A stretch of 64,000 nt of DNA from a virus. Location: positions 1 through 64,000 of IMG/VR virus record IMGVR_UViG_3300036863_000049. One strand, 5' to 3'. The number at the start of each line of letters is the position of its first letter. Position 1 is the first letter of the stretch. Below are positions 4,522 through 24,268 of the stretch, one piece after another. The notes beneath the pieces are model-generated. The model saw nothing but the letters and a program-made list of their open reading frames with translations. It was not told the origin of the DNA and did no database searches. The position numbers were made by a program, and so were the translations under genes.

Positions 4522-4555
4522 GCCTCCTTTCTACAACGCATCGGTCTTACCGTCA

Positions 4556-4635
4556 AGTATAGTGTATCGTTCGTAGTCTGTCAAGTAATGCTTGACAGAA
4601 GATCGTGAATATGCTATAATCTGTCTTGTAAGACA
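4556..4635. promoter_or_regulatory. Divergent promoter pair with palindromic operators, copy 1
   Basis: Rightward promoter: TTGACA 4592-4597, 17-bp spacer, TATAAT 4615-4620 (full consensus). Leftward promoter: TTGACA on the minus strand at 4584-4579, 17-bp spacer, TATACT at 4561-4556. The two -35 boxes form one inverted repeat (8-bp arms 4578-4585 and 4591-4598). A second palindrome TGTCTTGTAAGACA (4622-4635) covers the rightward start. The rightward leader then has a GC-rich hairpin at about 4643-4673. Confidence 0.85.
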
Positions 4636-4696
4636 CGACAAAGGCGCGCCCCGGATGGTACCCGAGACGCGCCAATAGCAGACAAGGAGAACGCCC

Positions 4697-5077: not shown

Positions 5078-5088
5078 GAGACACGACA

Positions 5089-5337
5089 ATGCCACTCACT
5101 CACAACCAGCGCGCCATCCTCGCGGCCATCGAAGCCGGCCACATCACGATCCGCGATATCGCGCAGCACACCGGCATCGGCTCGACGGCGACGGTTCACA
5201 CGAATTTGAGGAAGCTCGAAAAGGGCGGCCACTTGATCCTGCACAAGAACGGCGGCCATACGCAGGTTGATGCTGGCCGAGACTTCGCCCGAGGATGGGA
5301 CACCGCCGCGCGGCTCGCTGGCAATCCCGACGCCTGA
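5089..5337 (+). CDS. Winged-helix DNA-binding protein, copy 1
   Basis: An 82-aa protein with a LexA/MarR-like HTH: TIRDIAQHTGIGSTATVHTN is the helix pair, followed by a wing (KGGHLILHKNGG). GGAGACACGACA precedes the ATG. It is a likely regulator within the rightward operon. Confidence 0.65.
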   Translation: MPLTHNQRAILAAIEAGHITIRDIAQHTGIGSTATVHTNLRKLEKGGHLILHKNGGHTQVDAGRDFARGWDTAARLAGNPDA

Positions 5338-5409
5338 ACCGAATCCAACCAGGCCGCGCCGTCGTTTTCGTCGGTGTAGCGGCCACTACAACCCAAAGGA
5401 GCAACGACC

Positions 5410-6096
5410 ATGATCACCCACAACGAAGAGACCGGATGGGGCTTCACCCTCGGCAAGCAACCCTACGTCGGCTATGCCAGCCGCGAAGAAGCCGCAACCG
5501 CTTTGTACGACCTGGAGCGCGGTATCATCTGCCGCGCAACCGACGCAGCCCTAGCAGGAAACACGACGGACGATGAGATCGCGATCCTCGACTGGATAGA
5601 CAAGCAGGCCGCGGCCCTGCCCGGCAACGTGATCGTCACCGCCGCCGCGCGCTATGACACGAACGACGACGCCGTGACACCGACTATCCGCCCCACACCC
5701 GCCGGCCTGGCCATCGGCTATGACAGCGACGAGGGCGGCCCCGCGGCCATCACGGAGGTCTGGCACGCATCATCCGCGCCGCTCACGATCGTGCTGACCG
5801 ACGATAATGAGTTGTGGGTGCTCAGCCGCGATGAGTGGGGCAGCCCGGCCCAGATCGTCACCGTCGAACGCCTCGCTGATGCGGAGTGCCCCTGCACCGA
5901 TTATCGCTGCGGCAATGTGACCCTCGAAGTCCTCGACGACCGTCACGACGATCCGGCCGGCGCCGGTCTGACCGTCTACAACTTCGGCGGCGACTGCCGC
6001 AGCCTGGCAAGCGCCGAGCAGGATGCGCGCGATCTGCTCACGCTGCTCGGTGATGAGCGCGTCAAGGCAGCGATCGACGCCCGCATGAGTGCCTAA
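5410..6096 (+). CDS. Unknown 228-aa protein, copy 1
   Basis: An acidic, soluble-looking protein. The N-terminal segment TGWGFTLGKQPYVGYASREE resembles small beta domains. A Cys cluster lies mid-C-terminal (ADAECPCTDYRCGN), possibly a metal site. RBS AAAGGAG. Third gene of the rightward operon; function unknown. Confidence 0.6.
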   Translation: MITHNEETGWGFTLGKQPYVGYASREEAATALYDLERGIICRATDAALAGNTTDDEIAILDWIDKQAAALPGNVIVTAAARYDTNDDAVTPTIRPTPAGLAIGYDSDEGGPAAITEVWHASSAPLTIVLTDDNELWVLSRDEWGSPAQIVTVERLADAECPCTDYRCGNVTLEVLDDRHDDPAGAGLTVYNFGGDCRSLASAEQDARDLLTLLGDERVKAAIDARMSA

Positions 6097-6129
6097 TCAT
6101 AACCGCTACCCTACAAGGAGACAACGACC

Positions 6130-6222
6130 ATGCTTTCGCTCACCATCCTGACCATCTCATCCGTGCTCTCGGGGTTCGCCATCGGCGTCGCGTTCGCACG
6201 CTACTACCGCCGCGCCGCCTAG
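6130..6222 (+). CDS. 30-aa membrane peptide, copy 1
   Basis: A tiny ORF with strong RBS (AAGGAG, 8 nt before ATG) and one membrane segment (LTILTISSVLSGFAIGVAFA) ending in a basic YYRRAA tail. It sits immediately before a terminator. The size and shape recall small type I toxins or membrane modulators; no assignment. Confidence 0.5.
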   Translation: MLSLTILTISSVLSGFAIGVAFARYYRRAA

Positions 6223-6238
6223 CTCGTCCGTCGTCTCG

Positions 6239-6275
6239 CGCCCCGGTTCGCATCGTTGCAGCCGGGGCGTTCTCC
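6239..6275 (+). terminator. Rho-independent-like terminator, copy 1
   Basis: 8-bp GC stem CGCCCCGG (6239-6246) with CCGGGGCG (6262-6269) followed by TTCTCCTT. It ends the first rightward operon after the 30-aa peptide. Confidence 0.6.
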
Positions 6276-6385
6276 TTGCCCGCTGCGCAACTTAGAGCGC
6301 AATTAGTACGTCTGTCTCATTGTCACGTGTGGTATCATATATGTTGGATGTATTGCGCGAGCAATCACTGAGCGAAGGGATTCCA

Positions 6386-6742
6386 ATGACTACGCCGGCG
6401 CCAGAAGAGACAAACGGCGGCGATATGCCCGAAGATCTGGGGCTCGCTCTCCCGATTGAGTGGTATATTCCAGAAGGTCTTGCAACGCGCTACACGACGA
6501 ATTACGTAGTTCAACATACGGAACACGAGTTCATCATCTCTTTCTTTGAGGTACCCACACCGATCTTGCTGGGCCGGCCCGACGAGGTGCGCGACGCCGC
6601 TAAGAAAATGGAATCAGTTCGCGCTACATGTGTCGCGCGCGTGGTTATTGCCGGCGGTCGGATGCCCGATTTCGTGCGAATTCTACAGGAGAACCTGGAA
6701 ACGTACCGCGCCAGATTTGGACAGGAGGAGCACGATGAGTGA
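6386..6742 (+). CDS. DUF3467-like protein, copy 1
   Basis: A 118-aa protein resembling DUF3467: PIEWYIPEGLATRYTTNYVV, then VARVVIAGGRMPDFVRIL and a terminal ENLETYRARFG helix. I start it at the ATG at 6386 (AAGGGA 5 nt upstream) rather than the upstream TTG at 6320. It overlaps the antitoxin-like gene by 8 nt. DUF3467 has no firm function; here it travels with a toxin-antitoxin pair. Confidence 0.65.
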   Translation: MTTPAPEETNGGDMPEDLGLALPIEWYIPEGLATRYTTNYVVQHTEHEFIISFFEVPTPILLGRPDEVRDAAKKMESVRATCVARVVIAGGRMPDFVRILQENLETYRARFGQEEHDE

Positions 6743-6971
6743 GCAGGTACTTCGGCTCCAGTTTGGCACAACCCAGAGCACTGGCTATGTGGTATCACTT
6801 CGCGCGGCCGTACGCGCAACAACAGCCTTATGGGATCTCGAGGAGGCATCAGAGCGCCGCTGGCAGGAGACTTTCGCGGCCTCCCAAGACTTTCTAGCAG
6901 AACTAGGGGACAAGGCGCTCGCCGACTTTTTGGCGGGTAATACAGAAGTCCTCGATCCCGATAACTTGTGA
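6735..6971 (+). CDS. Putative antitoxin, copy 1
   Basis: A 78-aa acidic helical protein (ATTALWDLEEASERRW...) with RBS CAGGAGGAG. Its stop overlaps the GTG start of the RelE/HigB-like gene, the typical antitoxin-first or coupled arrangement. The antitoxin role is assigned from position only. Confidence 0.5.
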   Translation: MSEQVLRLQFGTTQSTGYVVSLRAAVRATTALWDLEEASERRWQETFAASQDFLAELGDKALADFLAGNTEVLDPDNL

Positions 6972-7231
6972 TCTCGCATATCACCTCGGATTTTCGCGCC
7001 GCCTTTGCGCGGCTGCCTGAGCACGTGCGGCGGCAGGCACGTGCTGCCTACCATCTATTTTGTCAGGACCCCCATCATCCCAGCTTACAATTTAAGTCGA
7101 TAGTACCCTCTATCTACTCAGTGCGTATTGGCCCGCATTACCGCGCCCTTGGAAAACGCCGTGAAGATACCATTATTTGGTATTGGATCGGTTCGCATGC
7201 CGATTATGACCGCCTCTGGAAACGCCAATAA
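6968..7231 (+). CDS. RelE/HigB-like toxin, copy 1
   Basis: An 87-aa basic protein: SDFRAAFARLPEHVRRQARAAY matches the N-terminal helices of the RelE/ParE/HigB fold, YSVRIGPHYRALGKRR the central strands, and IIWYWIGSHADYDRLW the C-terminal HxxYD motif. GTG start at 6968 inside the previous stop. It likely acts as an mRNA interferase stabilising the element; family-based inference. Confidence 0.75.
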   Translation: MISHITSDFRAAFARLPEHVRRQARAAYHLFCQDPHHPSLQFKSIVPSIYSVRIGPHYRALGKRREDTIIWYWIGSHADYDRLWKRQ

Positions 7232-7264
7232 AATGGAGCGCACCGCCCCGCCCCCGCCCGCAAC

Positions 7265-7304
7265 AATCCCCCCGCTCGCACCACGCGGCCGGGGGATTTG
7301 CTTT
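7265..7304 (+). terminator. Terminator after the toxin gene, copy 1
   Basis: Stem AATCCCCC (7265-7272) with GGGGGATT (7291-7298) followed by TGCTTT. It lies between convergent operons: the rightward toxin operon and the leftward tail gene ending at 7408. Confidence 0.55.
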
Positions 7305-7407
7305 GTGTGTCGAAGCAACGACGCCACAGGAGCCATTCTGCCGATCTCGGCGTACCAGGACAGCGCTCCGACCGTCGCAGCGGGCAGGCTGGGGCGCTCA
7401 TAGCCGC

Positions 7408-8562
7408 TCATGCGCTCAGCCGCGCGAGTAGCGCATCAACACTGTCACTCGCCGCCGGCTCCAACGTCACACCAATGCGATCGCCACTCACTGAGCACGT
7501 CACCCGCTCGACGTACTGGCGTGTCGCCGCATCATAGGCGGTTGAAACGGGGCTGGCATCAAGAAGCCCGATCTCCTGGTACATCGTATCGGGCCGGACC
7601 TCCCACGGCGGAACCAAACTGCCATCTGGTGTGTAGACCGCATGGCTTCCGAGCGGCGAAACATAGGTAGGGATGGCAGGCGTCGCGCCAGCCCACTTAC
7701 GGAACGTGAGCAGCCGCCCCTCCAGGCACATCAGCACCCAGCGATCAACGCCGTCCCCCTGTGCGACCAGCGCTTCGATCTTATCCTGGTATGGCGTGAG
7801 TGGTGCGATATACTCCGTATCACTTACCCCCGTTGCTCCGATCTGTGCCGTTGACGTGCTGAGGAATGCGTTCGTCACGCCGATGCCGACGCCGGAGGCC
7901 GCGATGAGCGCACCGATCTGCGTATTCGTCGCCGTAAACGTCGTGCTGGTGCGGCTGGTGAGCACCCAGCCGAGCGTTGCGTACCAGCCGCGGAAGAGCA
8001 GATCCACGCGCACATCACCGCCGGCCCCCGTCGCGATCTCGGTACTCGGCGTCTGCGGCGGATTTTTGTACTTGGCGAGCACTTGCGTGGCCGCGTTCGT
8101 CGCCGCTGTTAAGGATGAGCCGCCGAGCGCGACGACGAGCTGCTTTGTCCCATAGGTCGCGATGCTCGAGGCGTCACTAACAACGCTCGCAGTCGTTCCA
8201 ATGCCCTGATCATCTGAGTAGCGCGGGCGAATGGAGTTGTACATTTTCTCCAGGCTGATGCTGCGCTTCCGTCCGCCGAGTGAGATGCTGATCTCGGAGA
8301 GGTAGCCCTCCCAAACAATCCCAACGTCTGGGCCATACACCACGGTCGAACGCATCAGCCAATTACTGAGGATGTCAACCGCTTCATCCAGGTCGCACGT
8401 GAAGCCGATTCTCATCGACTCGAAGCCGCCCCGCGCTGCGATCGTGTGCTCATAGTCATCCGCGCGCATAGCCAAGTCGATACCGAGATACGTGGCGCTC
8501 GGCACACCGGCCGCCCCCCGGTCAAAAAGCGGGATCGATAGGCCAATCTCAGTGAGTAACAT
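7408..8562 (-). CDS. Tail-hub (Tal-like) protein of the satellite-like unit
   Basis: A 384-aa tail-tip protein directly downstream (2 nt) of a Dit-like protein, the place of Tal/hub proteins in siphovirus late operons. The segment about 98-384 is identical to the phage protein at 23114-24268, because it lies in the long repeat. Residues 1-97 differ at many sites (for example SIPLFDRGAAG versus SIPLTERGAAG). No tape-measure gene accompanies it in this unit. Confidence 0.7.
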   Translation of the reverse strand: MLLTEIGLSIPLFDRGAAGVPSATYLGIDLAMRADDYEHTIAARGGFESMRIGFTCDLDEAVDILSNWLMRSTVVYGPDVGIVWEGYLSEISISLGGRKRSISLEKMYNSIRPRYSDDQGIGTTASVVSDASSIATYGTKQLVVALGGSSLTAATNAATQVLAKYKNPPQTPSTEIATGAGGDVRVDLLFRGWYATLGWVLTSRTSTTFTATNTQIGALIAASGVGIGVTNAFLSTSTAQIGATGVSDTEYIAPLTPYQDKIEALVAQGDGVDRWVLMCLEGRLLTFRKWAGATPAIPTYVSPLGSHAVYTPDGSLVPPWEVRPDTMYQEIGLLDASPVSTAYDAATRQYVERVTCSVSGDRIGVTLEPAASDSVDALLARLSA

Positions 8563-12812: not shown

Positions 12813-15545
12813 TCAGGATGATGCGGCTCGGGCGGCGGCAATCGTCTCATCGACATCGACACGGCGCAGTGCGCAGTGAGTCCGGATGCCGCGCATAGCC
12901 TGCTCGTCACCAACCGCCAGCATCTGCCGCACATAGGCGAGGTCAGGCGTGTGGTAGTCCGGCAGGTCAACCTCCTCGACTGCGCCCCGCCGTGGAGTGA
13001 CAACCTCGGTGACAACCTCATCAGGCAGGTTGTCACTCGCTCGACCGCTTTGTGATGCCTCAGTGACAACGTGACAACCTGTGACAACCTTTTTAGTAAA
13101 AGAATAGTCATAGGGAGTACCCCCCACCACATCACTGCCCTGTGATACAGGCGGGAGGGGGGTGGGGGGTAGCGTATTTATCTTTTGGGTATTTTGCCCG
13201 TCACGGGCTGTCACGTTGTCATTTTGGCTTTGGGACGCACTACGCCGAGTGACAACCTCATCAGGCAGGTTGTCACTGGTTGTCACTGGGTTGTCACGCG
13301 GCGCGATGCCGCGGTAGCCGCGCCAGCGGTTGGTGCGAACCTTCTGCACACCCAGGCGCACCAGCACGCGCGACAGCTCCATCGCTTGCGCCGTCGCGCT
13401 GCCGCTGAGTTTGATATCGTGCTTGTGCAGGTGGTCAACGATGTCGGCAGAGGTCATCAGTGCCCGGTCGCCGGCGTCGCAGTCAAAATACTTGGTCAGC
13501 CAGCCGTCGAGCACGCTCTCAAGCTCATGCGCCTTATTTTGCTCCGACTGGTACGCGGCCTCGACCGGCAGCAGGCGCCAGGGCTCGCCAGCGCGGTACA
13601 GCGCGACGGCCTGTGCCCAGAGCTGATCAACGTCGAGTTTGGTGTAGCTCCAGTCGATACGCGCGATGGTCATCACGAGGAAGCGCCGGTTGCCGGTTTC
13701 GTCGACCAGGAAGCCGCTGCCGTCGTTGACCGTGCCGACCATGGACGCCAGCGCGGGCCTGTCCGTATCGTAGTGGGCATAGGATCTGCGCACCGTAACC
13801 TTGTCACAGGTGATAAAGGCTTTCAGGGCAGACGCATCTGCACGGCGGGTCGTGGCATCCAGTTCGGAGACTTCCCATATAAAGCGCGACATGAGCCGAA
13901 TGTAGGTATCTTTGTCGTCGACCTTGATCGGCGCCTCAACAAAGCGATCGGGGATGCCTCGGCAGAGCCACCGCACCAGTTCCGACTTGCCGATATTTTG
14001 CGGGCCGGAGAGCACCAGCATCATATTCTGATGCTGATCGAGCACTTTCGCGACGGCGCCGACAAGCCAGCGTTTGAGATAGATGGCGTGAAGCGGTTGC
14101 AGCTTCCCGTCAGGGTATTCGATAAGCGGATCGGGGCTATCCATATGCGCGGCGAGCAACCCAATGTGGTCGTTGCCGTCCCACTCCAGGCCGGTCAAGT
14201 AGTCTCGGATCGGGTGGTAGGCATGTCTAGCGGCCTCGGTCGTGTAGACAGTTTCGACCATCCCCAGCGGCTTGATATTTGCGTCCCAGGCGCGAGTTCT
14301 GATCTCCGCGCGGGTCGTGTCGTTCATCGGCGTGCCGTTCACCTCGATCCGGTCATCGCAGAGATTCAGCGCAAAGCGGTACCCGAGCGCTTCCAGCCCG
14401 CGCGTGATGATCTGTGAGGGGAGCGGCAGCTCGTCGGGGGGTTCGGTTGCTTGTGGCGCGGTGTAGCCTTCACCCCTCCACCAGTAGTGGAAATCTCCGA
14501 TCGGGCACCACCAGTTCCCTTTTTTGCTTCTTTTGAGCCGCGATTCGGGATGCTCAGGGCAGCAGGCGTGTCCGTCTGCATCGTAGTGCGGCTCGGCGGG
14601 CGGCGGGGGCGGAAGATCGAGTGGCTTAGCCTTGCCGTAGCTGACAGCATCGCGGATCGTTTCGAGTTCGCCGTTCTGATGTTTTTGCGGTACGCTGGCG
14701 TGATAGAGCGCGGATTCGATCTGGCTTTCGGTCGCCAGCCCATGCGGGATAAGCCCGCCGAGCAGCCGCGCCGCTTTCAGCCGAGTCTTGTGCTTTTCGC
14801 CGGCCGGCGCCTGAGCGACCATACGAATCGCTTCAGCGAATTTCTGGTCAGCCCACGCTTTCTGATAGTCGCCGCTGGCCGCACGAACGCGCGGGGGCTG
14901 CGGCGCGGTCTCGGTGGTATCACCGGGCGGTAGCAGAGCGACGAGGGCGACGAGGTCGTAGCAGGCCGTCAGGTTTGTCCAGACATAGGCGACGGTCGGA
15001 CGATCCGCGTACTTGCTGTTGCGGGTGCCGGGGACGCGCAGGATGCGTGCGAGGTCTTTCGCGCCATCGTCCGAGCCGACGAACTCAACCCACCGCCGTT
15101 GGATGTCGGCGATGTACTCGCGATCTTCGTCGTCCCTGATGATGAACGGCTCGTTGAGAAGCCAGTAGGAGTGATATCCGCCGCCAGAGTCGATCGTCAC
15201 CGAGGGCTGTGCCGGAAGCGCCTTGACGTGAGCGAGCGCCCGCTCCTTGCTGCCGTCGAAGTCCTTGGCATCGTGTTCGCTGTAGAGCGCGTTGACCGCG
15301 GCCACGCAGTCGTTTCGTGAACGCGCGTACTCCGGCTTGACCGGGTTGCCCTCGTCATCCTTTTCGGGGATGCTCGTGGCCGGGTTAACACCGAAATAGA
15401 GATCGATGGTGGTCGGCAGTTCAGGCGCGCCGGTGCCATTCCACCAGGTAGAACGCTTGCCGGCCAGCTGCCAATAGTAGCTATAGTCGCCGCCGCGGTG
15501 CAGATGTGTCAGGAGCTGGGCGGTCTGGGTGTCGAGGTGCGTCAT
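12813..15545 (-). CDS. PrimPol/VirE-type primase-helicase
   Basis: A 910-aa replication protein. The N-terminal part looks like an archaeo-eukaryotic PrimPol domain (SGGGYHSYW about 120-128; ARILRVPGTRNSKY about 166-179). A zinc-ribbon-like segment (CCPEHPES...WWCP) lies about 328-347. The helicase is VirE-like: Walker A GPQNIGKSE about 514-522, Walker B FIWEVSELD about 555-563, then GSGFLVDETGNRRF. The C-terminal 150 residues are low complexity because they encode the iteron cluster. Such proteins replicate satellites and plasmids autonomously. Confidence 0.85.
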   Translation of the reverse strand: MTHLDTQTAQLLTHLHRGGDYSYYWQLAGKRSTWWNGTGAPELPTTIDLYFGVNPATSIPEKDDEGNPVKPEYARSRNDCVAAVNALYSEHDAKDFDGSKERALAHVKALPAQPSVTIDSGGGYHSYWLLNEPFIIRDDEDREYIADIQRRWVEFVGSDDGAKDLARILRVPGTRNSKYADRPTVAYVWTNLTACYDLVALVALLPPGDTTETAPQPPRVRAASGDYQKAWADQKFAEAIRMVAQAPAGEKHKTRLKAARLLGGLIPHGLATESQIESALYHASVPQKHQNGELETIRDAVSYGKAKPLDLPPPPPAEPHYDADGHACCPEHPESRLKRSKKGNWWCPIGDFHYWWRGEGYTAPQATEPPDELPLPSQIITRGLEALGYRFALNLCDDRIEVNGTPMNDTTRAEIRTRAWDANIKPLGMVETVYTTEAARHAYHPIRDYLTGLEWDGNDHIGLLAAHMDSPDPLIEYPDGKLQPLHAIYLKRWLVGAVAKVLDQHQNMMLVLSGPQNIGKSELVRWLCRGIPDRFVEAPIKVDDKDTYIRLMSRFIWEVSELDATTRRADASALKAFITCDKVTVRRSYAHYDTDRPALASMVGTVNDGSGFLVDETGNRRFLVMTIARIDWSYTKLDVDQLWAQAVALYRAGEPWRLLPVEAAYQSEQNKAHELESVLDGWLTKYFDCDAGDRALMTSADIVDHLHKHDIKLSGSATAQAMELSRVLVRLGVQKVRTNRWRGYRGIAPRDNPVTTSDNLPDEVVTRRSASQSQNDNVTARDGQNTQKINTLPPTPLPPVSQGSDVVGGTPYDYSFTKKVVTGCHVVTEASQSGRASDNLPDEVVTEVVTPRRGAVEEVDLPDYHTPDLAYVRQMLAVGDEQAMRGIRTHCALRRVDVDETIAAARAASS
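12997..13297. other. Iteron cluster, candidate replication origin inside the primase gene
   Basis: Eleven copies of GTGACAAC or its complement: forward at 12997, 13009, 13063, 13071, 13081, 13249; reverse at 13027, 13213, 13267, 13277, 13288. Two 28-bp segments (13009-13036 and 13249-13276) look identical and are themselves inverted repeats. AT-rich stretches lie between them (about 13090-13112 and 13173-13195). P4-like satellites have comparable iterons recognised by their primase-helicase. Confidence 0.7.
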
Positions 15546-15757
15546 GGCCGCACCGCCGATCGCGTAGTCATAGCGTAGTCATAGGGTGCGATACAAGGCA
15601 ACACGTTGCAACAGCCACGCGTTCGTTTCGTGCATCCTGTTGCGAGAGGGCAACAGCCTCGTATACCCCGCAATTCCCCATCCGGTAATAGATATGTAAC
15701 AGTGTACCCCGTTGTGTTGCGGCGTTTTGAGGTAATGTGTAGTCGTAGCGTAGTCAT
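15542..15757 (-). CDS. 71-aa ORF between integrase copy 2 and primase
   Basis: The ORF is joined by ATGA overlaps to the integrase stop on one side and the primase start on the other, suggesting a coupled operon. The protein is basic and Cys-containing (LRGIRGCCPLATGCTKRTRGCC). However, both ends fall in a 20-bp direct repeat, so the segment may instead be a site for integrase. Real coding status is open. Confidence 0.35.
   Translation of the reverse strand: MTTLRLHITSKRRNTTGYTVTYLLPDGELRGIRGCCPLATGCTKRTRGCCNVLPCIAPYDYAMTTRSAVRP
15562..15757. other. Candidate attachment/arm-site region next to integrase copy 2
   Basis: Direct repeats CGTAGTCATAGCGTAGTCAT (15563-15582) and TGTAGTCGTAGCGTAGTCAT (15738-15757) bracket about 155 bp that also holds inverted GCAACA/TGTTGC motifs. 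The right repeat is also present at the end of integrase copy 1 (32-51). Location at the 3' end of int is common for attP. No tRNA sequence is present here. Confidence 0.35.
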
Positions 15758-16968
15758 GGCGCCGATCCTCCCGCTTTTCGGTGCTGCTGGATCGCCGCGT
15801 CTAGCCCTTCCTCGATCATTTCGGCGGCCTCGTTGAGTTCGTCCTGAAAGAGGTGGGTGTACACGTCGTCGGTGATTCGGGTATCAGCGTGGCCGAGATA
15901 GACCGAGATCGTCTTTACGGGCGCCCGCTTGCGGTGGAGGAAGGTCGCTGCGCTGTGGCGCAGGCTATGCGGGGAGAACCCCGCGAGGCCGATCAGCTTC
16001 GCGGCACGCTGGAAAGCGGTATAGATCCGGCCGGAGTCGAGCGCGCCGCCACTCTTGATCGCGATGAAGACATAGTCCTCATCCTCGTTCGCTGGCGTTT
16101 TCCACTTCTCCCCCATCGCCCGTCTCTCGGCTTCCTGGCGCGCCTGGTGCCACGTAAACGCGGCGACGAGGGACGCCGGCAGCTTGAAGATGCGTACATC
16201 GTCTGACTTGGTTTCGCCGTGCTGAAGCCCATAGCCTCGCACATAGCCCAAGGTGCCGCGGATCGTCAGCGTGCCGACCACCAAGTCAACGTCTTTCCAT
16301 CGCAGGGCGCAGACTTCGCCGCGGCGCAGGCCGAACACGAACAGCAGCCTAAGCGCCAATTCCAGCCGATCGCCCTTCGCCGCCTCCAGCAGCGCGGCGA
16401 CCTGGCTGAGCGTCATGGCCTTGCTGCTCCCCTTCTTGACCTCCGGGCCCTTCGCCCGATCGACGGGGTTGTACTCCAGCAGGTCATCCTCAACGGCCTG
16501 TTCCAAAATCTGGTGCAGCACCGCACGAACGACCCGGATCGAGGCGGGCGCGAGCTTCTGACGGGTCAGGGCGTTGATGAACTTGCGCACGATCGGTGTG
16601 CGGATGTGGCGGACCTCCGTGTCGCCGAGCTGCGGCGCGATATGCGCCTCGAACGCCCAGCGGTAGATCGCGATGGTGCTCGGGCGGCCAGTGAGTACGA
16701 AGGCGTCAAGCCAGTCGGTACCATACTCACGTAGGGTCTGAGGCTCTTTCGTGAGATCGATGCCCTGCTCGTGCTGCTTGCGGAGCTTGACCAACTCGGC
16801 CTCGGCCTCGGTCTTTTCCTTAAAGCGGCGGCTGCGCACCTTCTGCCGCCTGCCGTCGTCGCTCCAGCCGACTGTCAGCTCGGCGCAGTAGCCGATCGGC
16901 TTGCCCTTCCGCGTGAAGCGGATGACGGTGCCCTCGCCGTTTTTGCGCCCGCGTGGTCTACGCACCAT
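15754..16968 (-). CDS. int: Tyrosine recombinase/integrase, copy 2
   Basis: 404 aa with the same domain order and catalytic residues as copy 1, differing at 18 residues that are spread along the chain and spare the R, HxxR and Y positions. It is followed by the 71-aa ORF and the primase, so it belongs to the unit 7408-23113. Intact in both copies, so both units could be active. Confidence 0.93.
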   Translation of the reverse strand: MVRRPRGRKNGEGTVIRFTRKGKPIGYCAELTVGWSDDGRRQKVRSRRFKEKTEAEAELVKLRKQHEQGIDLTKEPQTLREYGTDWLDAFVLTGRPSTIAIYRWAFEAHIAPQLGDTEVRHIRTPIVRKFINALTRQKLAPASIRVVRAVLHQILEQAVEDDLLEYNPVDRAKGPEVKKGSSKAMTLSQVAALLEAAKGDRLELALRLLFVFGLRRGEVCALRWKDVDLVVGTLTIRGTLGYVRGYGLQHGETKSDDVRIFKLPASLVAAFTWHQARQEAERRAMGEKWKTPANEDEDYVFIAIKSGGALDSGRIYTAFQRAAKLIGLAGFSPHSLRHSAATFLHRKRAPVKTISVYLGHADTRITDDVYTHLFQDELNEAAEMIEEGLDAAIQQHRKAGGSAP

Positions 16969-17176
16969 GTTGCGCCTCCTGTTGCTCCACGACGGCCAGG
17001 AAGCTCGCGATGCGGATGCGGAGCGCCGAGCCGATCTTGAGCGACTCGATGCGCCGGCTGCGGACGGCCGGATAATAATGCCGGTACCACGTCACGCGGT
17101 CGATACCCATGATCTCGGCGAGTTCGCCGGGGCTGGCGTAGGCACGGCCGGCGTATTTTTCAGGGAGAACGATCAT
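16958..17176 (-). CDS. Excisionase-like HTH protein, copy 2
   Basis: 72 aa; same as the protein at 1252-1470 except near residues 3-4 and at its last residue. The boundary between diverged and identical DNA falls inside this gene, at 17169/17170. Confidence 0.65.
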   Translation of the reverse strand: MIVLPEKYAGRAYASPGELAEIMGIDRVTWYRHYYPAVRSRRIESLKIGSALRIRIASFLAVVEQQEAQHGA

Positions 17177-17409
17177 CAGTTCAACCCCTCCCTTGGCGGC
17201 ACGAACCCGCGCACGCGCACGTACTCGCCGATGCGCTTGACCCATACCCTGGTGCCCGGCGGCATCGGCTCGGGCGCTTCGCCCGGCAGCAGATCGCGCT
17301 CGTAGCCGGTCGCGTCTGGGTGCTGCATAAAATACTCGTAATCGACATCCTGCGACGGGTCGGAGTCTATCGGCGGCGCGATGATGACCGGAACATTTCT
17401 GCCTCTCAT
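17176..17409 (-). CDS. Small unknown protein, copy 2
   Basis: 77 aa, identical to the gene at 1470-1703, with the same coupled start and stop. Confidence 0.6.
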   Translation of the reverse strand: MRGRNVPVIIAPPIDSDPSQDVDYEYFMQHPDATGYERDLLPGEAPEPMPPGTRVWVKRIGEYVRVRGFVPPREGLN

Positions 17410-17543
17410 CGCATACCGCCGCTTTCCAGCACGGCCTTCCAGCGGCGCAGTACGAAGCGCACGAGCAGGGGCGGTCGATGGTCGATGAGGAAGATCACCG
17501 CGTCGAGCAGGTGACTGCGGGTGCGATCGAAGGGTGCGAACAT
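17406..17543 (-). CDS. Small unknown protein, copy 2
   Basis: 45 aa, identical to 1700-1837; GGAGG 5 nt before the ATG at 17543. Confidence 0.5.
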   Translation of the reverse strand: MFAPFDRTRSHLLDAVIFLIDHRPPLLVRFVLRRWKAVLESGGMR

Positions 17544-17561
17544 AAATCCTCCGTTATGGGC

Positions 17562-17616
17562 TTGACATAGCAGCCGTCTTGCCCCATAATGGAGGGTGTC
17601 GCGCCCGTCCATTATG
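17562..17616 (+). promoter_or_regulatory. Rightward promoter with operator palindrome, copy 2
   Basis: TTGACA 17562-17567, 17-bp spacer, CATAAT 17585-17590; inverted repeat 17585-17593 with 17608-17616 over the -10 and start. Confidence 0.65.
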
Positions 17617-17659
17617 AGACGTTGAGAAAGCCGCCAGCCGCCGTAGGGCGGCTTTCTCA
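17597..17659 (+). ncRNA. Candidate small RNA, copy 2
   Basis: Same promoter-to-hairpin interval as 1891-1953, with no ORF between start and terminator. Confidence 0.4.
17624..17658. terminator. Bidirectional hairpin terminator, copy 2
   Basis: 12-bp perfect stem 17624-17635 with 17647-17658, overlapping the stop of the RHH gene. Confidence 0.55.
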
Positions 17660-17857
17660 TTGTGTCCCTGATATGACTGAGCGAGCATCCGCGCCGTCTT
17701 TTCCTGACCGCGGATGCTCGCTCTCTTGCAAAACCCTACGAAGCGCGATGCGCACGGCCTCCGAGGCCGAGACGCCCTCGCGCTGTGCCAACGCTGCGAT
17801 CGCCTCGCGATCGCCCGGCATCACACGCATGGTCCAAAAAACGTCTCTCCACGCCAT
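17657..17857 (-). CDS. Ribbon-helix-helix protein, copy 2
   Basis: 66 aa, identical to 1951-2151, including the 15-bp inverted repeat within its 3' codons (17679-17693 with 17709-17723). Confidence 0.7.
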   Translation of the reverse strand: MAWRDVFWTMRVMPGDREAIAALAQREGVSASEAVRIALRRVLQESEHPRSGKDGADARSVISGTQ

Positions 17858-17926
17858 GGGTCTGCTCCTTCGTTCGTACGCATTGTAACATATGAATCCC
17901 TTTCGATCAAGTAGCAATCCGATCGA

Positions 17927-18457
17927 TTATTCGATCACTTTTGTGCCTGCTCTACCTTGCAACTTTTTACTTTTGCTTCCCCATCCCCCTGCGGCGTCAT
18001 AAGCGGCCTTGACGGTTCGCAGGTAGCTATAACTGAAGCCGGTTTCTTCGGCGAGTTGGCGCAGGGTGATGCGGCTACCTTGCGCCCGTGATCGATAGTA
18101 GCGCTCGATGACTTCCTCGGCGCTTGGCTCGGCCGTGCGGCGAATATCGTGGGCACGGAGTTCGAGCGGGTTTACTTCCTCTTCGAAAATCGGTCGCCAG
18201 AAGCCGGCCCATGCGGGCAACTCGAACATCGTGATACGAGTCCCGTTGCCTTGCTTGGCGAAGATAATGCTGAGTACGGCAAAGTCTTGGCTCTCCGTAT
18301 AGCCATCAATACGATAGCCGTCGTCGGTGAAATCATCGCGCCAGGTTACCCCCTGCGGGGCGCGACGACGCGCCTGGATCGCAGCCGCGGCTGCGATCCA
18401 CCACCAGTCACTGATGGGGAGGGATGCCCGGTGTATGATATATGGCTCGCTCATCAC
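17927..18457 (-). CDS. HTH protein of unknown function, copy 2
   Basis: 176 aa, identical to 2221-2751 (Trp-rich N terminus, C-terminal HTH, basic tail). Confidence 0.6.
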   Translation of the reverse strand: MMSEPYIIHRASLPISDWWWIAAAAAIQARRRAPQGVTWRDDFTDDGYRIDGYTESQDFAVLSIIFAKQGNGTRITMFELPAWAGFWRPIFEEEVNPLELRAHDIRRTAEPSAEEVIERYYRSRAQGSRITLRQLAEETGFSYSYLRTVKAAYDAAGGWGSKSKKLQGRAGTKVIE

Positions 18458-18494
18458 GCCCTCAGCAGCTCAGCGGATACTGCGCCCGATTATA

Positions 18495-18656
18495 TCACCG
18501 CTTCTGCTTCAGCTGCGCGGTATATTGCGTCCAGGCCAACAAGAAGCGCCGCGCCGTGTCCTGCTCCGTCGGCCCGCGGGCGTCGCGCAGCTGCTGGGTG
18601 AACTTCGCCACCATGCGCTGGGCGTGGTCAAGCTCGGCCTGTTCGTCGGATGTCAT
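18495..18656 (-). CDS. Small 53-aa protein, copy 2
   Basis: Identical to 2789-2950; ATGA-coupled to the 107-aa gene. Confidence 0.5.
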   Translation of the reverse strand: MTSDEQAELDHAQRMVAKFTQQLRDARGPTEQDTARRFLLAWTQYTAQLKQKR

Positions 18657-18976
18657 TGGCGCATCATCCGTCTCGCCTGGTCGACTCGCTCATCCTCGGC
18701 TCGCTGCTTTCGCCAGATCTCAAAATCACGCAGCTGCTTTTCTTCCTGGGTCAGCACTTGCGTAACGCGCGTGTTGAGCTGGGGATGCGCGGACTGGTAG
18801 GGTGGGATCGTGTCGCTCACGTCGTCCTGCGGCGCAGCCACGTCGAGCAGGCCGGCCAGCGTCTGCATATCCTGATCGTTCGCGTCTGTCCACCTCAGGC
18901 CCGCGTGGGCAGTCAGCGCTTTCAAGTAGTGACGGACGATAGAAGCGGCGTGTTCGCCTGGTGGTAAAATAGCCAT
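18653..18976 (-). CDS. Small charged protein, copy 2
   Basis: 107 aa, identical to 2947-3270. Confidence 0.55.
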   Translation of the reverse strand: MAILPPGEHAASIVRHYLKALTAHAGLRWTDANDQDMQTLAGLLDVAAPQDDVSDTIPPYQSAHPQLNTRVTQVLTQEEKQLRDFEIWRKQRAEDERVDQARRMMRQ

Positions 18977-19040
18977 TGTCGTAACCTCTCACGTCAGGTT
19001 GCGGCCAGCCGGGCGGGTGCGACCACACCGCGCCCGGCAT

Positions 19041-19505
19041 TTAATTCTCGTTGACGGCCTTGAACTTCTCAAGCGGGTGCGGGCGTTCTGGGTAGACTGG
19101 CGCCGGTCGCTCTGCTCGGATCTCGCGAATGAGCGCAAGCACGGTATTGCGATCGCCGCCGACATAGGTAGCGATCTGGTTGGCGGAGCTGCGATAGGCG
19201 CCGCCCTTGCGCTGCACTGCCAGTACGGTGATCAACTCCGTGTCGGTCAACTCGCGCCCGATCCGTGGCATTATGTCATCGCCCGAAGCGATGGTATGCC
19301 CGTCCATACCAGTATCCCATACTGGTATACATACCGCTTCCATATCAGGCGAAATTGGCGGCGCGCTCTGAGGGCGTGACATAATGACGCCGCCTATTCG
19401 GGCGCTCACCTCGGGCCACCAGGCCCTTATGATGCCCGCCGGCACAAGCACGACGGCGGCGATCGCCAGTCCGCACATCACGACATCCCCGAGTGTTTGG
19501 AGCAT
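19041..19505 (-). CDS. Membrane-anchored protein with HTH-like C terminus, copy 2
   Basis: 154 aa, identical to 3335-3799; one N-terminal membrane segment and a C-terminal winged-HTH-like region. Confidence 0.55.
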   Translation of the reverse strand: MLQTLGDVVMCGLAIAAVVLVPAGIIRAWWPEVSARIGGVIMSRPQSAPPISPDMEAVCIPVWDTGMDGHTIASGDDIMPRIGRELTDTELITVLAVQRKGGAYRSSANQIATYVGGDRNTVLALIREIRAERPAPVYPERPHPLEKFKAVNEN

Positions 19506-19520
19506 GGCGCACCTCCGAAT

Positions 19521-19997
19521 CTAGCCCGACTCCCATAAATACTCAGACAGGCTGGCGAGCAGTAGCCCGATCGTGAGCGCTAGCAGGAACGCCGCACTAG
19601 GGGTCATCGCTGCCTGCACGTTCATCACCTCGGCGAGCATCCTACCGACATCCGTTTGCGCCAGCCGGCCCATATATGGGTACAGCCCGCCCGCGTTCAG
19701 GAGGCCGTCAACGAACGTGACGACCAGGCCGACAACCGCCAGCCGGCCGCCATTGCGCCGCATCAGGAATCGCCACAACGGACGCTCGGCGATCGTCAAG
19801 AGCCATTGTACACCACCAGCCAGCAACGCGCTCACAAGCCAGCTGGCGCCCGGCATCGCCCGCGCAAAGAACAGGTAGGTAGTGAATGTGCCGAGCAGCC
19901 AGGCAACGACCGCGGCCACGCGGTGCCATGCGACCTGCGACCGCGCACGCTCGGCTGGCTTGCCATCGCGTAGCGGCTCTGAATGAACGGTGCTCAT
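19521..19997 (-). CDS. Polytopic membrane protein, copy 2
   Basis: 158 aa, identical to 3815-4291; about four membrane segments. Confidence 0.6.
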   Translation of the reverse strand: MSTVHSEPLRDGKPAERARSQVAWHRVAAVVAWLLGTFTTYLFFARAMPGASWLVSALLAGGVQWLLTIAERPLWRFLMRRNGGRLAVVGLVVTFVDGLLNAGGLYPYMGRLAQTDVGRMLAEVMNVQAAMTPSAAFLLALTIGLLLASLSEYLWESG

Positions 19998-20227
19998 TCT
20001 GGCACCTCCTCCATCATGAGGAGGTCGCCGGTCCCGCACTCGAAGTAATTACACAGCCGCTCGATCACATCCTTCGGGTACTCGGTTAGTTCGTTGTTCG
20101 CCAGCGCGTAGATCGTATAGGTGCTGATGCCTGTGGTGCGTGCGATGCTCCGCAACGTGACCCGGCGCCCGTCGCGCTGCGACTTTTGCGCGACCAGCAC
20201 TAGTAAGTTGCTTTTCAACTTTCTCAT
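19994..20227 (-). CDS. XRE-family HTH regulator, copy 2
   Basis: 77 aa, identical to 4288-4521. With two identical regulators and operators, the two tandem units should be controlled together. Confidence 0.8.
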   Translation of the reverse strand: MRKLKSNLLVLVAQKSQRDGRRVTLRSIARTTGISTYTIYALANNELTEYPKDVIERLCNYFECGTGDLLMMEEVPE

Positions 20228-20261
20228 GCCTCCTTTCTACAACGCATCGGTCTTACCGTCA

Positions 20262-20341
20262 AGTATAGTGTATCGTTCGTAGTCTGTCAAGTAATGCTTG
20301 ACAGAAGATCGTGAATATGCTATAATCTGTCTTGTAAGACA
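20262..20341. promoter_or_regulatory. Divergent promoter pair with palindromic operators, copy 2
   Basis: Rightward TTGACA 20298-20303 / TATAAT 20321-20326; leftward TTGACA 20290-20285 / TATACT 20267-20262; both spacers 17 bp. Palindromes at 20284-20304 and 20328-20341. Confidence 0.85.
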
Positions 20342-20402
20342 CGACAAAGGCGCGCCCCGGATGGTACCCGAGACGCGCCAATAGCAGACAAGGAGAACGC
20401 CC

Positions 20403-20783
20403 ATGTCTACCACCCTCAGTTTACCACCGATCGAGATCATGGCCGCGGCCGCGGCCGAACTCGCCGAACAGGCCCAGATCGCCGGCGATCGTCCCCTCGT
20501 CAACGCGCTCAACAAAGCCATGCTCCAACTCCACGAAGGCACTGCCCCGGTTCCGACCATCGGCGGCTGGCTGCTGGAGAGCCGCACGCGTCCCGGTACG
20601 GTTCATCGGATTAGCCTCAGAAATGGGTGTTCGTGCGAGGCCGGATGCAACGCGCGCACCTGCTGGCATGTGCAGCTGATGACCATTATCGAGCGCGCCG
20701 CCGAACAGTACACAATGCCCGCGCTGCACATTCAGGCCAAAGCCGAGATTGACGCCGACTTGACCGCCAGCGCCGCTCCATAG
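20403..20783 (+). CDS. SWIM zinc-finger protein, copy 2
   Basis: 126 aa, identical to 4697-5077 (CxC...CxH signature). Confidence 0.7.
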   Translation: MSTTLSLPPIEIMAAAAAELAEQAQIAGDRPLVNALNKAMLQLHEGTAPVPTIGGWLLESRTRPGTVHRISLRNGCSCEAGCNARTCWHVQLMTIIERAAEQYTMPALHIQAKAEIDADLTASAAP

Positions 20784-20794
20784 GAGACACGACA

Positions 20795-21043
20795 ATGCCA
20801 CTCACTCACAACCAGCGCGCCATCCTCGCGGCCATCGAAGCCGGCCACATCACGATCCGCGATATCGCGCAGCACACCGGCATCGGCTCGACGGCGACGG
20901 TTCACACGAATTTGAGGAAGCTCGAAAAGGGCGGCCACTTGATCCTGCACAAGAACGGCGGCCATACGCAGGTTGATGCTGGCCGAGACTTCGCCCGAGG
21001 ATGGGACACCGCCGCGCGGCTCGCTGGCAATCCCGACGCCTGA
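20795..21043 (+). CDS. Winged-helix DNA-binding protein, copy 2
   Basis: 82 aa, identical to 5089-5337. Confidence 0.65.
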   Translation: MPLTHNQRAILAAIEAGHITIRDIAQHTGIGSTATVHTNLRKLEKGGHLILHKNGGHTQVDAGRDFARGWDTAARLAGNPDA

Positions 21044-21115
21044 ACCGAATCCAACCAGGCCGCGCCGTCGTTTTCGTCGGTGTAGCGGCCACTACAACCC
21101 AAAGGAGCAACGACC

Positions 21116-21802
21116 ATGATCACCCACAACGAAGAGACCGGATGGGGCTTCACCCTCGGCAAGCAACCCTACGTCGGCTATGCCAGCCGCGAAGAAGCCG
21201 CAACCGCTTTGTACGACCTGGAGCGCGGTATCATCTGCCGCGCAACCGACGCAGCCCTAGCAGGAAACACGACGGACGATGAGATCGCGATCCTCGACTG
21301 GATAGACAAGCAGGCCGCGGCCCTGCCCGGCAACGTGATCGTCACCGCCGCCGCGCGCTATGACACGAACGACGACGCCGTGACACCGACTATCCGCCCC
21401 ACACCCGCCGGCCTGGCCATCGGCTATGACAGCGACGAGGGCGGCCCCGCGGCCATCACGGAGGTCTGGCACGCATCATCCGCGCCGCTCACGATCGTGC
21501 TGACCGACGATAATGAGTTGTGGGTGCTCAGCCGCGATGAGTGGGGCAGCCCGGCCCAGATCGTCACCGTCGAACGCCTCGCTGATGCGGAGTGCCCCTG
21601 CACCGATTATCGCTGCGGCAATGTGACCCTCGAAGTCCTCGACGACCGTCACGACGATCCGGCCGGCGCCGGTCTGACCGTCTACAACTTCGGCGGCGAC
21701 TGCCGCAGCCTGGCAAGCGCCGAGCAGGATGCGCGCGATCTGCTCACGCTGCTCGGTGATGAGCGCGTCAAGGCAGCGATCGACGCCCGCATGAGTGCCT
21801 AA
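21116..21802 (+). CDS. Unknown 228-aa protein, copy 2
   Basis: Identical to 5410-6096. Confidence 0.6.
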   Translation: MITHNEETGWGFTLGKQPYVGYASREEAATALYDLERGIICRATDAALAGNTTDDEIAILDWIDKQAAALPGNVIVTAAARYDTNDDAVTPTIRPTPAGLAIGYDSDEGGPAAITEVWHASSAPLTIVLTDDNELWVLSRDEWGSPAQIVTVERLADAECPCTDYRCGNVTLEVLDDRHDDPAGAGLTVYNFGGDCRSLASAEQDARDLLTLLGDERVKAAIDARMSA

Positions 21803-21835
21803 TCATAACCGCTACCCTACAAGGAGACAACGACC

Positions 21836-21928
21836 ATGCTTTCGCTCACCATCCTGACCATCTCATCCGTGCTCTCGGGGTTCGCCATCGGCGTCGCGTT
21901 CGCACGCTACTACCGCCGCGCCGCCTAG
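21836..21928 (+). CDS. 30-aa membrane peptide, copy 2
   Basis: Identical to 6130-6222; strong RBS and a single membrane segment. Confidence 0.5.
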   Translation: MLSLTILTISSVLSGFAIGVAFARYYRRAA

Positions 21929-21944
21929 CTCGTCCGTCGTCTCG

Positions 21945-21981
21945 CGCCCCGGTTCGCATCGTTGCAGCCGGGGCGTTCTCC
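21945..21981 (+). terminator. Rho-independent-like terminator, copy 2
   Basis: Stem 21945-21952 with 21968-21975, then TTCTCCTT. Confidence 0.6.
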
Positions 21982-22091
21982 TTGCCCGCTGCGCAACTTA
22001 GAGCGCAATTAGTACGTCTGTCTCATTGTCACGTGTGGTATCATATATGTTGGATGTATTGCGCGAGCAATCACTGAGCGAAGGGATTCCA

Positions 22092-22448
22092 ATGACTACG
22101 CCGGCGCCAGAAGAGACAAACGGCGGCGATATGCCCGAAGATCTGGGGCTCGCTCTCCCGATTGAGTGGTATATTCCAGAAGGTCTTGCAACGCGCTACA
22201 CGACGAATTACGTAGTTCAACATACGGAACACGAGTTCATCATCTCTTTCTTTGAGGTACCCACACCGATCTTGCTGGGCCGGCCCGACGAGGTGCGCGA
22301 CGCCGCTAAGAAAATGGAATCAGTTCGCGCTACATGTGTCGCGCGCGTGGTTATTGCCGGCGGTCGGATGCCCGATTTCGTGCGAATTCTACAGGAGAAC
22401 CTGGAAACGTACCGCGCCAGATTTGGACAGGAGGAGCACGATGAGTGA
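22092..22448 (+). CDS. DUF3467-like protein, copy 2
   Basis: 118 aa, identical to 6386-6742. Confidence 0.65.
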   Translation: MTTPAPEETNGGDMPEDLGLALPIEWYIPEGLATRYTTNYVVQHTEHEFIISFFEVPTPILLGRPDEVRDAAKKMESVRATCVARVVIAGGRMPDFVRILQENLETYRARFGQEEHDE

Positions 22449-22677
22449 GCAGGTACTTCGGCTCCAGTTTGGCACAACCCAGAGCACTGGCTATGTGGTA
22501 TCACTTCGCGCGGCCGTACGCGCAACAACAGCCTTATGGGATCTCGAGGAGGCATCAGAGCGCCGCTGGCAGGAGACTTTCGCGGCCTCCCAAGACTTTC
22601 TAGCAGAACTAGGGGACAAGGCGCTCGCCGACTTTTTGGCGGGTAATACAGAAGTCCTCGATCCCGATAACTTGTGA
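22441..22677 (+). CDS. Putative antitoxin, copy 2
   Basis: 78 aa, identical to 6735-6971; coupled to the toxin gene. Confidence 0.5.
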   Translation: MSEQVLRLQFGTTQSTGYVVSLRAAVRATTALWDLEEASERRWQETFAASQDFLAELGDKALADFLAGNTEVLDPDNL

Positions 22678-22937
22678 TCTCGCATATCACCTCGGATTTT
22701 CGCGCCGCCTTTGCGCGGCTGCCTGAGCACGTGCGGCGGCAGGCACGTGCTGCCTACCATCTATTTTGTCAGGACCCCCATCATCCCAGCTTACAATTTA
22801 AGTCGATAGTACCCTCTATCTACTCAGTGCGTATTGGCCCGCATTACCGCGCCCTTGGAAAACGCCGTGAAGATACCATTATTTGGTATTGGATCGGTTC
22901 GCATGCCGATTATGACCGCCTCTGGAAACGCCAATAA
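22674..22937 (+). CDS. RelE/HigB-like toxin, copy 2
   Basis: 87 aa, identical to 6968-7231; GTG start within the antitoxin stop. Confidence 0.75.
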   Translation: MISHITSDFRAAFARLPEHVRRQARAAYHLFCQDPHHPSLQFKSIVPSIYSVRIGPHYRALGKRREDTIIWYWIGSHADYDRLWKRQ

Positions 22938-22970
22938 AATGGAGCGCACCGCCCCGCCCCCGCCCGCAAC

Positions 22971-23010
22971 AATCCCCCCGCTCGCACCACGCGGCCGGGG
23001 GATTTGCTTT
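22971..23010 (+). terminator. Terminator after the toxin gene, copy 2
   Basis: Stem 22971-22978 with 22997-23004, then TGCTTT; it separates the unit from the convergent phage tail operon. Confidence 0.55.
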
Positions 23011-23113
23011 GTGTGTCGAAGCAACGACGCCACAGGAGCCATTCTGCCGATCTCGGCGTACCAGGACAGCGCTCCGACCGTCGCAGCGGGCAGGCTGGGG
23101 CGCTCATAGCCGC

Positions 23114-24268
23114 TCATGCGCTCAGCCGCGCGAGTAGCGCATCAACACTGTCACTCGCCGCCGGCTCCAACGTCACACCAATGCGATCGCCACTCACTGA
23201 GCACGTCACCCGCTCGACGTACTGGCGTGTCGCCGCATCATAGGCGGTTGAAACGGGGCTGGCATCAAGAAGCCCGATCTCCTGGTACATCGTATCGGGC
23301 CGGACCTCCCACGGCGGAACCAAACTGCCATCTGGTGTGTAGACCGCATGGCTTCCGAGCGGCGAAACATAGGTAGGGATGGCAGGCGTCGCGCCAGCCC
23401 ACTTACGGAACGTGAGCAGCCGCCCCTCCAGGCACATCAGCACCCAGCGATCAACGCCGTCCCCCTGTGCGACCAGCGCTTCGATCTTATCCTGGTATGG
23501 CGTGAGTGGTGCGATATACTCCGTATCACTTACCCCCGTTGCTCCGATCTGTGCCGTTGACGTGCTGAGGAATGCGTTCGTCACGCCGATGCCGACGCCG
23601 GAGGCCGCGATGAGCGCACCGATCTGCGTATTCGTCGCCGTAAACGTCGTGCTGGTGCGGCTGGTGAGCACCCAGCCGAGCGTTGCGTACCAGCCGCGGA
23701 AGAGCAGATCCACGCGCACATCACCGCCGGCCCCCGTCGCGATCTCGGTACTCGGCGTCTGCGGCGGATTTTTGTACTTGGCGAGCACTTGCGTGGCCGC
23801 GTTCGTCGCCGCTGTTAAGGATGAGCCGCCGAGCGCGACGACGAGCTGCTTTGTCCCATAGGTCGCGATGCTCGAGGCGTCACTAACAACGCTCGCAGTC
23901 GTTCCAATGCCCTGATCATCTGAGTAGCGCGGGCGAATGGAGTTGTACATTTTCTCCAGGCTGATGCTGCGCTTCCGCCCGCCGAGTGAGATGCTGATCT
24001 CGGACAAATACCCTTCCCAGATCGTCTCCGTATCCGGCCCGGTCACGACCGTCGAGCGCATCAGCCAGTTGTTGAAGATGTCGATCGCCTCGTCTAAGTC
24101 GGCGGCGAACGATGTGCGCATTGACTCGAAGCCGCCGCGAGAGGCGATCGTGTGCTCGTAGCTCTCCGCGCGGCTGGCCAGGTTGATGCCGGTAGGCGTG
24201 GTGCCCGGTACGCCCGCCGCGCCTCTTTCCGTTAATGGGATAGAGACGCCGATCTCAGTCAGTAGCAC
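23114..24268 (-). CDS. Tail-hub (Tal-like) protein of the phage
   Basis: 384 aa, last gene of the phage late operon, following the Dit-like gene but separated from it by a cargo gene on the other strand. The N-terminal quarter (about 1-97) differs from the copy at 7408-8562, while the rest is identical. Family role: trimeric hub closing the tail tube, contacting fibers or host. Assigned by position after tape measure and Dit rather than by a hallmark motif. Confidence 0.72.
   Translation of the reverse strand: MLLTEIGVSIPLTERGAAGVPGTTPTGINLASRAESYEHTIASRGGFESMRTSFAADLDEAIDIFNNWLMRSTVVTGPDTETIWEGYLSEISISLGGRKRSISLEKMYNSIRPRYSDDQGIGTTASVVSDASSIATYGTKQLVVALGGSSLTAATNAATQVLAKYKNPPQTPSTEIATGAGGDVRVDLLFRGWYATLGWVLTSRTSTTFTATNTQIGALIAASGVGIGVTNAFLSTSTAQIGATGVSDTEYIAPLTPYQDKIEALVAQGDGVDRWVLMCLEGRLLTFRKWAGATPAIPTYVSPLGSHAVYTPDGSLVPPWEVRPDTMYQEIGLLDASPVSTAYDAATRQYVERVTCSVSGDRIGVTLEPAASDSVDALLARLSA

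What the first reader, a model, noticed from the sequence alone, without database searches (positions are those of the whole stretch)
12997..13297. Origin-like iteron cluster written into the coding sequence of the primase
Eleven GTGACAAC elements in both orientations, including two matching 28-bp inverted repeats, sit in the C-terminal codons. The protein there is low complexity and repeats SDNLPDEVVT. The DNA constraint appears to dictate the protein sequence. This would make the replicon's origin inseparable from its initiator.
Basis: partly seen in the sequence, partly recalled or inferred. Interest (0 to 1): 0.65.

Follow-up and report, generated by a model that had tools for sequence, protein, structure and literature searches.

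The report
Replication origin inside its initiator gene
A virus-like element carries what looks like its DNA-replication start site inside the gene for the enzyme that starts replication, so the repeated DNA signals also spell out a floppy stretch of that enzyme; related elements keep such signals at the same spot, often just after the gene, but spell them with different letters.

Summary
Ten (not eleven) GTGACAAC sites, all those in the 68.6-kb record, sit within 301 bp of the 3' part of a VapE-type primase-helicase gene, in two blocks around a lower-GC core with a strong hairpin. Keeping the protein and resampling codons gives 0.74 sites on average (maximum 5), so the DNA word is what is conserved. 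Best explanation: a PICI/SaPI-type origin bound by the protein's own winged-helix domain, read through as a disordered linker ending in a small helical tail. Support: VapE genes of many viral contigs carry repeat arrays at their 3' ends (23 of 54 loci against 12 of 613 control windows); relatives of this gene have the same two-block array with other words, either just after the stop codon or in frame (L351, L360, L420). In one relative a different helicase has replaced the old one together with its array, leaving a relic GTGACAAC pair and the old tail. Origin function is untested. Origins inside initiator genes are known (lambda O, repC), and iterons directly 3' of rep are the PICI rule; the in-frame array in a VapE primase is a new variant. 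'Inseparable' goes too far: close relatives keep the array outside the reading frame.

The parts
12813..15545 (-). VapE/D5-type primase-helicase gene, 910 aa (P0001)
   Evidence: PF05272 E 3.3e-43; PDB 7pds E 6.6e-15
13524..14195 (-). VapE-like helicase domain, residues 451-674
   Evidence: fold match to PriRep1 7pds
13332..13511 (-). predicted C-terminal winged-helix domain (about residues 679-738), proposed iteron reader
   Evidence: confident helices and strands at model residues 259-318; position as in SaPI/SCC Rep proteins; the name winged helix and the binding are inferred
13249..13297 (.). iteron block 1 (towards the helicase codons): 13290-13297, 13279-13286, 13269-13276, 13249-13256; includes a 28-bp inverted pair 13249-13276
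13089..13248 (.). core between the blocks with lower-GC segments; hairpin arms TACCCCCCACC 13118-13128 and its complement 13161-13171; one-mismatch iteron at 13216-13223
   Evidence: 50-bp GC 0.42 at 13050, 0.50 at 13100; z -3.18, 0 of 200 shuffles
12997..13088 (.). iteron block 2: 13081-13088, 13071-13078, 13063-13070, 13029-13036, 13009-13016, 12997-13004; includes a 28-bp inverted pair 13009-13036
12957..13313 (-). codons of the predicted disordered linker that carries the array (P0001 residues 745-863)
   Evidence: pLDDT mostly 33-42 in model residues 326-444
12816..12995 (-). C-terminal tail after the array (residues 851-910), predicted helices at 869-909
   Evidence: pLDDT about 88; 45% identity, E 6e-8, to the C-terminal part of the L369 primase

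Best explanation
The array is the replication origin of the element that encodes this primase-helicase. The VapE-type SF3 helicase, through the winged helix at the end of its helicase part, binds the GTGACAAC words in two blocks, loads on both sides of the lower-GC core, and opens it; the primase part then primes. This is the logic described for SaPI/PICI Pri-Rep and ori, where the origin lies directly 3' of rep. Here the reading frame runs through the origin: the iterons are translated as a roughly 100-residue disordered linker that joins the winged helix to a small helical tail. Shown by computation: site clustering, DNA-level conservation, two-block layout, recurrence of such arrays at VapE gene ends, predicted disorder, tail homology. 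Inferred: that the protein binds these sites, that replication starts here, and that the read-through product is made.
For: Clustering and DNA-level selection. Motif-blind survey of VapE genes: an 8-mer of 4 or more copies near the stop in 23 of 54 loci against 12 of 613 control windows of the same loci. Of 110 viral stretches with three GTGACAAC, 11 have the cluster within 400 nt of a VapE stop and 40 have sites in both orientations; with the reversed word the figures are 0 and 2 of 92. Layout in other phages: opposed blocks starting at the stop; in L071 and L020 the stop codon is part of the first iteron. Relatives: L357 (42% identical) GGGCAACC x13 from +4; L353 x6; L372 x9; L351, L360, L420 in frame with other words. 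L352: AAA_25 helicase with 18 ACTGAACT words plus a relic GTGACAAC pair and the tail, 97% DNA identity to L115 from that pair onward. Fold: 7pds PriRep1 with dsDNA, E 5.8e-15. Literature: PICI origins 3' of rep with two iteron sets around an AT-rich region (PMC6092414, passages); the C-terminal domain of Cch2 binds iterons 3' of its gene (PMC7581432, passages).
Against: No binding or replication data. GC skew shows no lasting switch here. 31 of 54 surveyed VapE loci have no 8-mer of 4 or more copies in the stretch searched, and L370 and L371 (42% identical) show none, so the arrangement is not universal. The record also holds an O/DnaB-type replication module (54687-56755) with its own repeats, so the array cannot be taken as the only origin of the contig. 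The core is only moderately AT-rich.
Confidence: 0.83

Rival explanations
1. The array is an operator or control site: the primase or a repressor binds it to regulate the gene or to set copy number (iteron handcuffing), not to start replication.
For: Iterons also control copy number in plasmids (general knowledge); inverted 28-bp pairs look like dimer sites.
Against: It lies at the 3' end of the gene, and arrays are tied to the gene end in distantly related phages; an array travels with the helicase type.
Confidence: 0.08
2. A protein-level repeat: the linker repeats because the peptide is useful, and the DNA words are a by-product.
For: SDNLPDEVVT occurs twice and the two copies are in the same frame.
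Against: Two phases and both orientations; 10 sites against at most 5 in 20,000 protein-preserving resamplings; relatives change the peptide, and several have the array outside the frame; predicted disorder.
Confidence: 0.03
3. A partition or recombination site (parS-like, or a crossover hotspot) that happens to lie at the end of the primase gene.
For: L352 and L115 show an exchange with its edge at the array.
Against: The word differs between helicase lineages, and no partition gene was seen among the neighbours that were scanned; that scan was not exhaustive.
Confidence: 0.05

Closest known systems
SaPI/PICI Pri-Rep and ori
   Same: Origin at the 3' end of the helicase gene; two iteron sets around an AT-rich region (PMC6092414); PriRep1 is the best solved fold match and SaPI5 primase-helicase is also found.
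   Different: Here the array is inside the reading frame with a protein tail after it; other words; the element has not been shown to be a PICI.
Lambda O gene / ori-lambda (lambdoid and Stx phages)
   Same: Iterons in the middle of the initiator gene; extra iterons add residues to the protein (PMC7466680, passages).
   Different: O is not a helicase or primase (general knowledge); here the protein is a VapE-type primase-helicase and the words sit in both orientations around a core.
repABC plasmids (oriV inside repC)
   Same: Origin inside the initiator coding sequence (PMC3155836, passages).
   Different: A large A+T region in repC; not a two-block GTGACAAC array.
SCCmec Cch2 and its downstream repeats
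   Same: C-terminal domain of a D5-type helicase binds direct repeats directly 3' of its gene (PMC7581432, passages).
   Different: Three short AAGTG iterons outside the gene.

Membership tests
VapE/D5-type SF3 primase-helicase | VapE-like helicase domain | tested here: met
   PF05272 E 3.3e-43; phrog_1313 E 1.2e-56
VapE/D5-type SF3 primase-helicase | Primase domain at the N-terminus | tested here: inconclusive
   RepB_primase only at E 0.03; phrog_2478 polymerase/primase E 1.3e-10 over residues 43-191
PICI/SaPI-type replicon | Iterons directly at the 3' end of rep, in two sets around an AT-rich region | tested here: met
   in frame rather than after the stop, core only moderately AT-rich
PICI/SaPI-type replicon | Rep binds its iterons and drives autonomous replication | not testable with these tools
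   needs gel shift and a plasmid assay
PICI (the whole element) | Phage-inducible satellite with its own int, master repressor and helper-dependent packaging | tested here: inconclusive
   an integrase gene lies at 48-1262, in the same 15.7-kb segment as the primase; no repressor, xis or packaging gene identified in that segment
Lambda O type origin | Initiator is an O-like protein | tested here: not met
   P0001 matches helicases and primases, no O family

The most novel reading that the evidence does not exclude
A recurrent class of fused origin-initiator genes: in several lineages of VapE-type (and one AAA_25-type) replication proteins, the whole iteron origin is held in frame as an encoded disordered linker between the DNA-binding domain and a tail. 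The word can be rewritten throughout the array, and exchange inside the array swaps a helicase together with its cognate origin while keeping the tail.
Probability: 0.5. Interest if true: 0.72.

Novelty: new variant of a known kind. Interest (0 to 1): 0.6.

Why it matters
It shows a stretch of protein whose sequence is set by a DNA signal, with a test built in: relatives rewrite the word and the peptide changes with it. [quoted passage not shown] Natural word switching between related winged helices would let the recognition code of these initiators be read from sequence.

Tried and rejected
GC skew as an origin marker: a local positive stretch over 12-16 kb only, no lasting switch. Finding close relatives by single-sequence scan: none in viral or genome contigs; relatives came through alignments and through the genome search. 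Raw counts of GTGACAAC triplets as evidence: rejected, since the reversed word gives 92 stretches against 110; only the both-orientation layout and the VapE neighbourhood differ. The idea that all VapE phages share GTGACAAC: rejected, 0 of the 76 surveyed loci have it near the stop. L092 as a further embedded GTGACAAC case: left open; three of its sites are 9 nt apart in a glycine/asparagine/aspartate-rich repeat. Literature for iterons with VapE: no paper in the held library has VapE, iterons and origin of replication together; the search for GTGACAAC with primase gave two unrelated papers. Dropped rows: L238, L244, L249 and L298 (no ORF by my filter); one search used 54 of 76 loci after removing near-duplicates, and L239/L240, whose arrays are identical, both stayed in. 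Many loci match only the N-terminal part of the query; 18 regions were scanned and 5 of 18 showed a helicase ORF of this kind.

Full report
OBSERVATION. The gene 12813-15545(-) encodes a 910-residue protein with a VapE-like helicase domain (PF05272, E 3.3e-43, residues 451-674). All ten GTGACAAC sites of the 68,639-bp virus record lie at 12997-13297, codons 750-850. The two 28-bp inverted repeats are real and identical. Among 700-bp windows of the 64 kb, those over this place hold one 8-mer ten times and no other exceeds four.

DNA OR PROTEIN? The sites occur in two of three codon phases and in both orientations and encode five different peptides. Most spacings (8, 10, 11, 20, 34 nt) are not multiples of three; 12 and 168 are. 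Resampling codons from the gene's own usage with the protein fixed gives 0.74 sites on average and at most 5 in 20,000 runs. Third-position GC falls from 0.77 before the array to 0.50 in it and returns to 0.70 in the tail. Only one of the six frames is open through the array; with the sites fixed and the other bases shuffled, 5.4% of versions keep that frame open, a weak sign that the frame is maintained.

ANATOMY. Read in the coding direction: three GTGACAAC and one GTTGTCAC; a 160-bp core with lower-GC segments and a strong hairpin (arms 13118-13128 and 13161-13171; z -3.18); then three GTTGTCAC, an inverted pair and a last GTTGTCAC. The AlphaFold model of residues 420-910 (46 sequences, mean pLDDT 76) is confident for helicase and winged helix, has pLDDT mostly 33-42 for residues 745-863, and is confident again for a small helical tail at 869-909. 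Foldseek's best solved match is PriRep1 with dsDNA (7pds, E 5.8e-15), and the SaPI5 primase-helicase 7ola is also found. The tail is 45% identical (E 6e-8) to the C-terminal part of the L369 primase, whose N-terminal part is 51% identical to P0001 but whose helicase is D5_N and whose linker shows no array: the tail looks like a real shared domain.

VapE GENES CARRY ARRAYS AT THEIR 3' ENDS. A scan for three GTGACAAC in viral contigs gave 110 stretches. In 12 of 110 a VapE gene is present, and in 11 the cluster lies within 400 nt of its stop (10 after it, 1 inside the gene); 40 of 110 have sites in both orientations. The reversed word gives 92 stretches, of which 0 and 2 do so. The 110 contain near-duplicates. 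The layout is mostly opposed blocks around a core, beginning at the stop codon; in L071 and in the D5/DUF5906-type L020 the TGA stop is the second to fourth base of the first iteron. A motif-blind set (80 loci; 76 with a usable ORF, 54 after removing near-duplicates) shows an 8-mer of four or more copies within -200..+500 of the stop in 23 of 54, against 12 of 613 control windows in the same loci. None of the 76 uses GTGACAAC near the stop; other words recur instead (GTGGGACA, GCTACACC, GTGGAAAC, TGTCAACA and others), and in these 23 the sites lie at or after the stop.

CLOSEST RELATIVES. Searches in genomes grouped with a Chloroflexales MAG (phylum sample: 7 of 400 genomes match at E 1e-5; class of G249: 13 of 158 at E 1e-10) and a viral scan with their alignment gave a series. 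Array just after the stop: L357 (GGGCAACC x13 from +4), L353 (GGTCTGCA x6), L359 (weak, 3 copies), L372 (AGGTTGTG x9, 8 of them after the stop, its TAG stop overlapping the first of these), L373/L374 (AGTGCAGA x5 and x7). Array in frame: L351 (CTACAACC x10), L360 (GATCCAGC x7), L420 (GGGCCAAC x9), each beyond every one of 5,000 protein-preserving resamplings, with 60, 60 and 54 residues after the array; the window also has 60. No array found: L370, L371.

A NATURAL SWAP. L115, a Chloroflexales contig that begins inside the gene, has GTTGTCAC x3 and a GTGACAAC-12-GTTGTCAC pair in an open frame, then a tail. L352, another contig of the same MAG, has an AAA_25 helicase, 18 ACTGAACT words in frame, then the same pair with one base of an arm changed and the same tail; DNA identity is 97% from exactly that pair onward. 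The simplest reading is that a different helicase came in with its own origin, by exchange inside the old array. This is inference from two contigs of a MAG.

MECHANISM. Inferred: the winged helix reads the words, helicase rings load on the two blocks, the core opens, and the primase starts synthesis, by analogy with SaPI-type Rep and Cch2 (PMC6092414 and PMC7581432, passages read). The linker is the price of having no stop codon before the array; why a tail is kept beyond it is not known.

NOVELTY. Origins inside initiator genes are established for lambda O (PMC7466680) and repC (PMC3155836). [quoted passage not shown] New here, as far as the searches show (listings, with passages of four papers read; 5.39 million open papers), are the in-frame version in a VapE primase, its recurrence with rewritten words, and the wide occurrence of 3'-end arrays in VapE-carrying viral contigs. 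The paper behind 7pds was not available.

LIMITS. All evidence is computational. The host of the record is unknown. The record seems to join two elements (see noticed items), so the array may serve only the first. MAG contigs and virus records may contain assembly errors.

Noticed in passing
window 2-8514 and 15708-24220: Direct repeat of 8.5 kb at 98.4% identity, each copy with a tyrosine-integrase gene near its start (48-1262, phrog_1 E 2.9e-72; 15754-16968 is its copy). The VapE primase lies between the copies, so the record may be two elements in tandem (the first about 15.7 kb, satellite-like) or an assembly join.
   Followed up: partly
window 54687-55412 (+), repeats at 55013-55115: A lambda O-like initiator gene (PF04492, E 8.4e-14) followed by a DnaB-like helicase gene; the O-like gene holds five related 23-bp repeats and then an A-rich stretch, a second candidate origin inside an initiator gene in the same window.
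   Followed up: partly
window 60355-61518 (+): A further tyrosine-integrase gene (phrog_1, E 6e-51), besides the two in the repeat.
   Followed up: no
L065:5456-7834 and 18 related loci: A 793-aa primase with a BT4734-like N-terminal domain; in most of these loci a GTGACAAC array (mostly 10-11 sites) lies at the START of the gene rather than at the end.
   Followed up: no
L128, L135, L155, L176: A Chloroflexi MAG (CoA_1_bin.38) carries short GTGACAAC triplets on several scaffolds, with no P0001 match in that genome.
   Followed up: no
L008, L044, L059, L076, L318 downstream of the array: The gene after the array starts like a VRR-NUC nuclease (recalled from the look of the sequence, not searched).
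   Followed up: no
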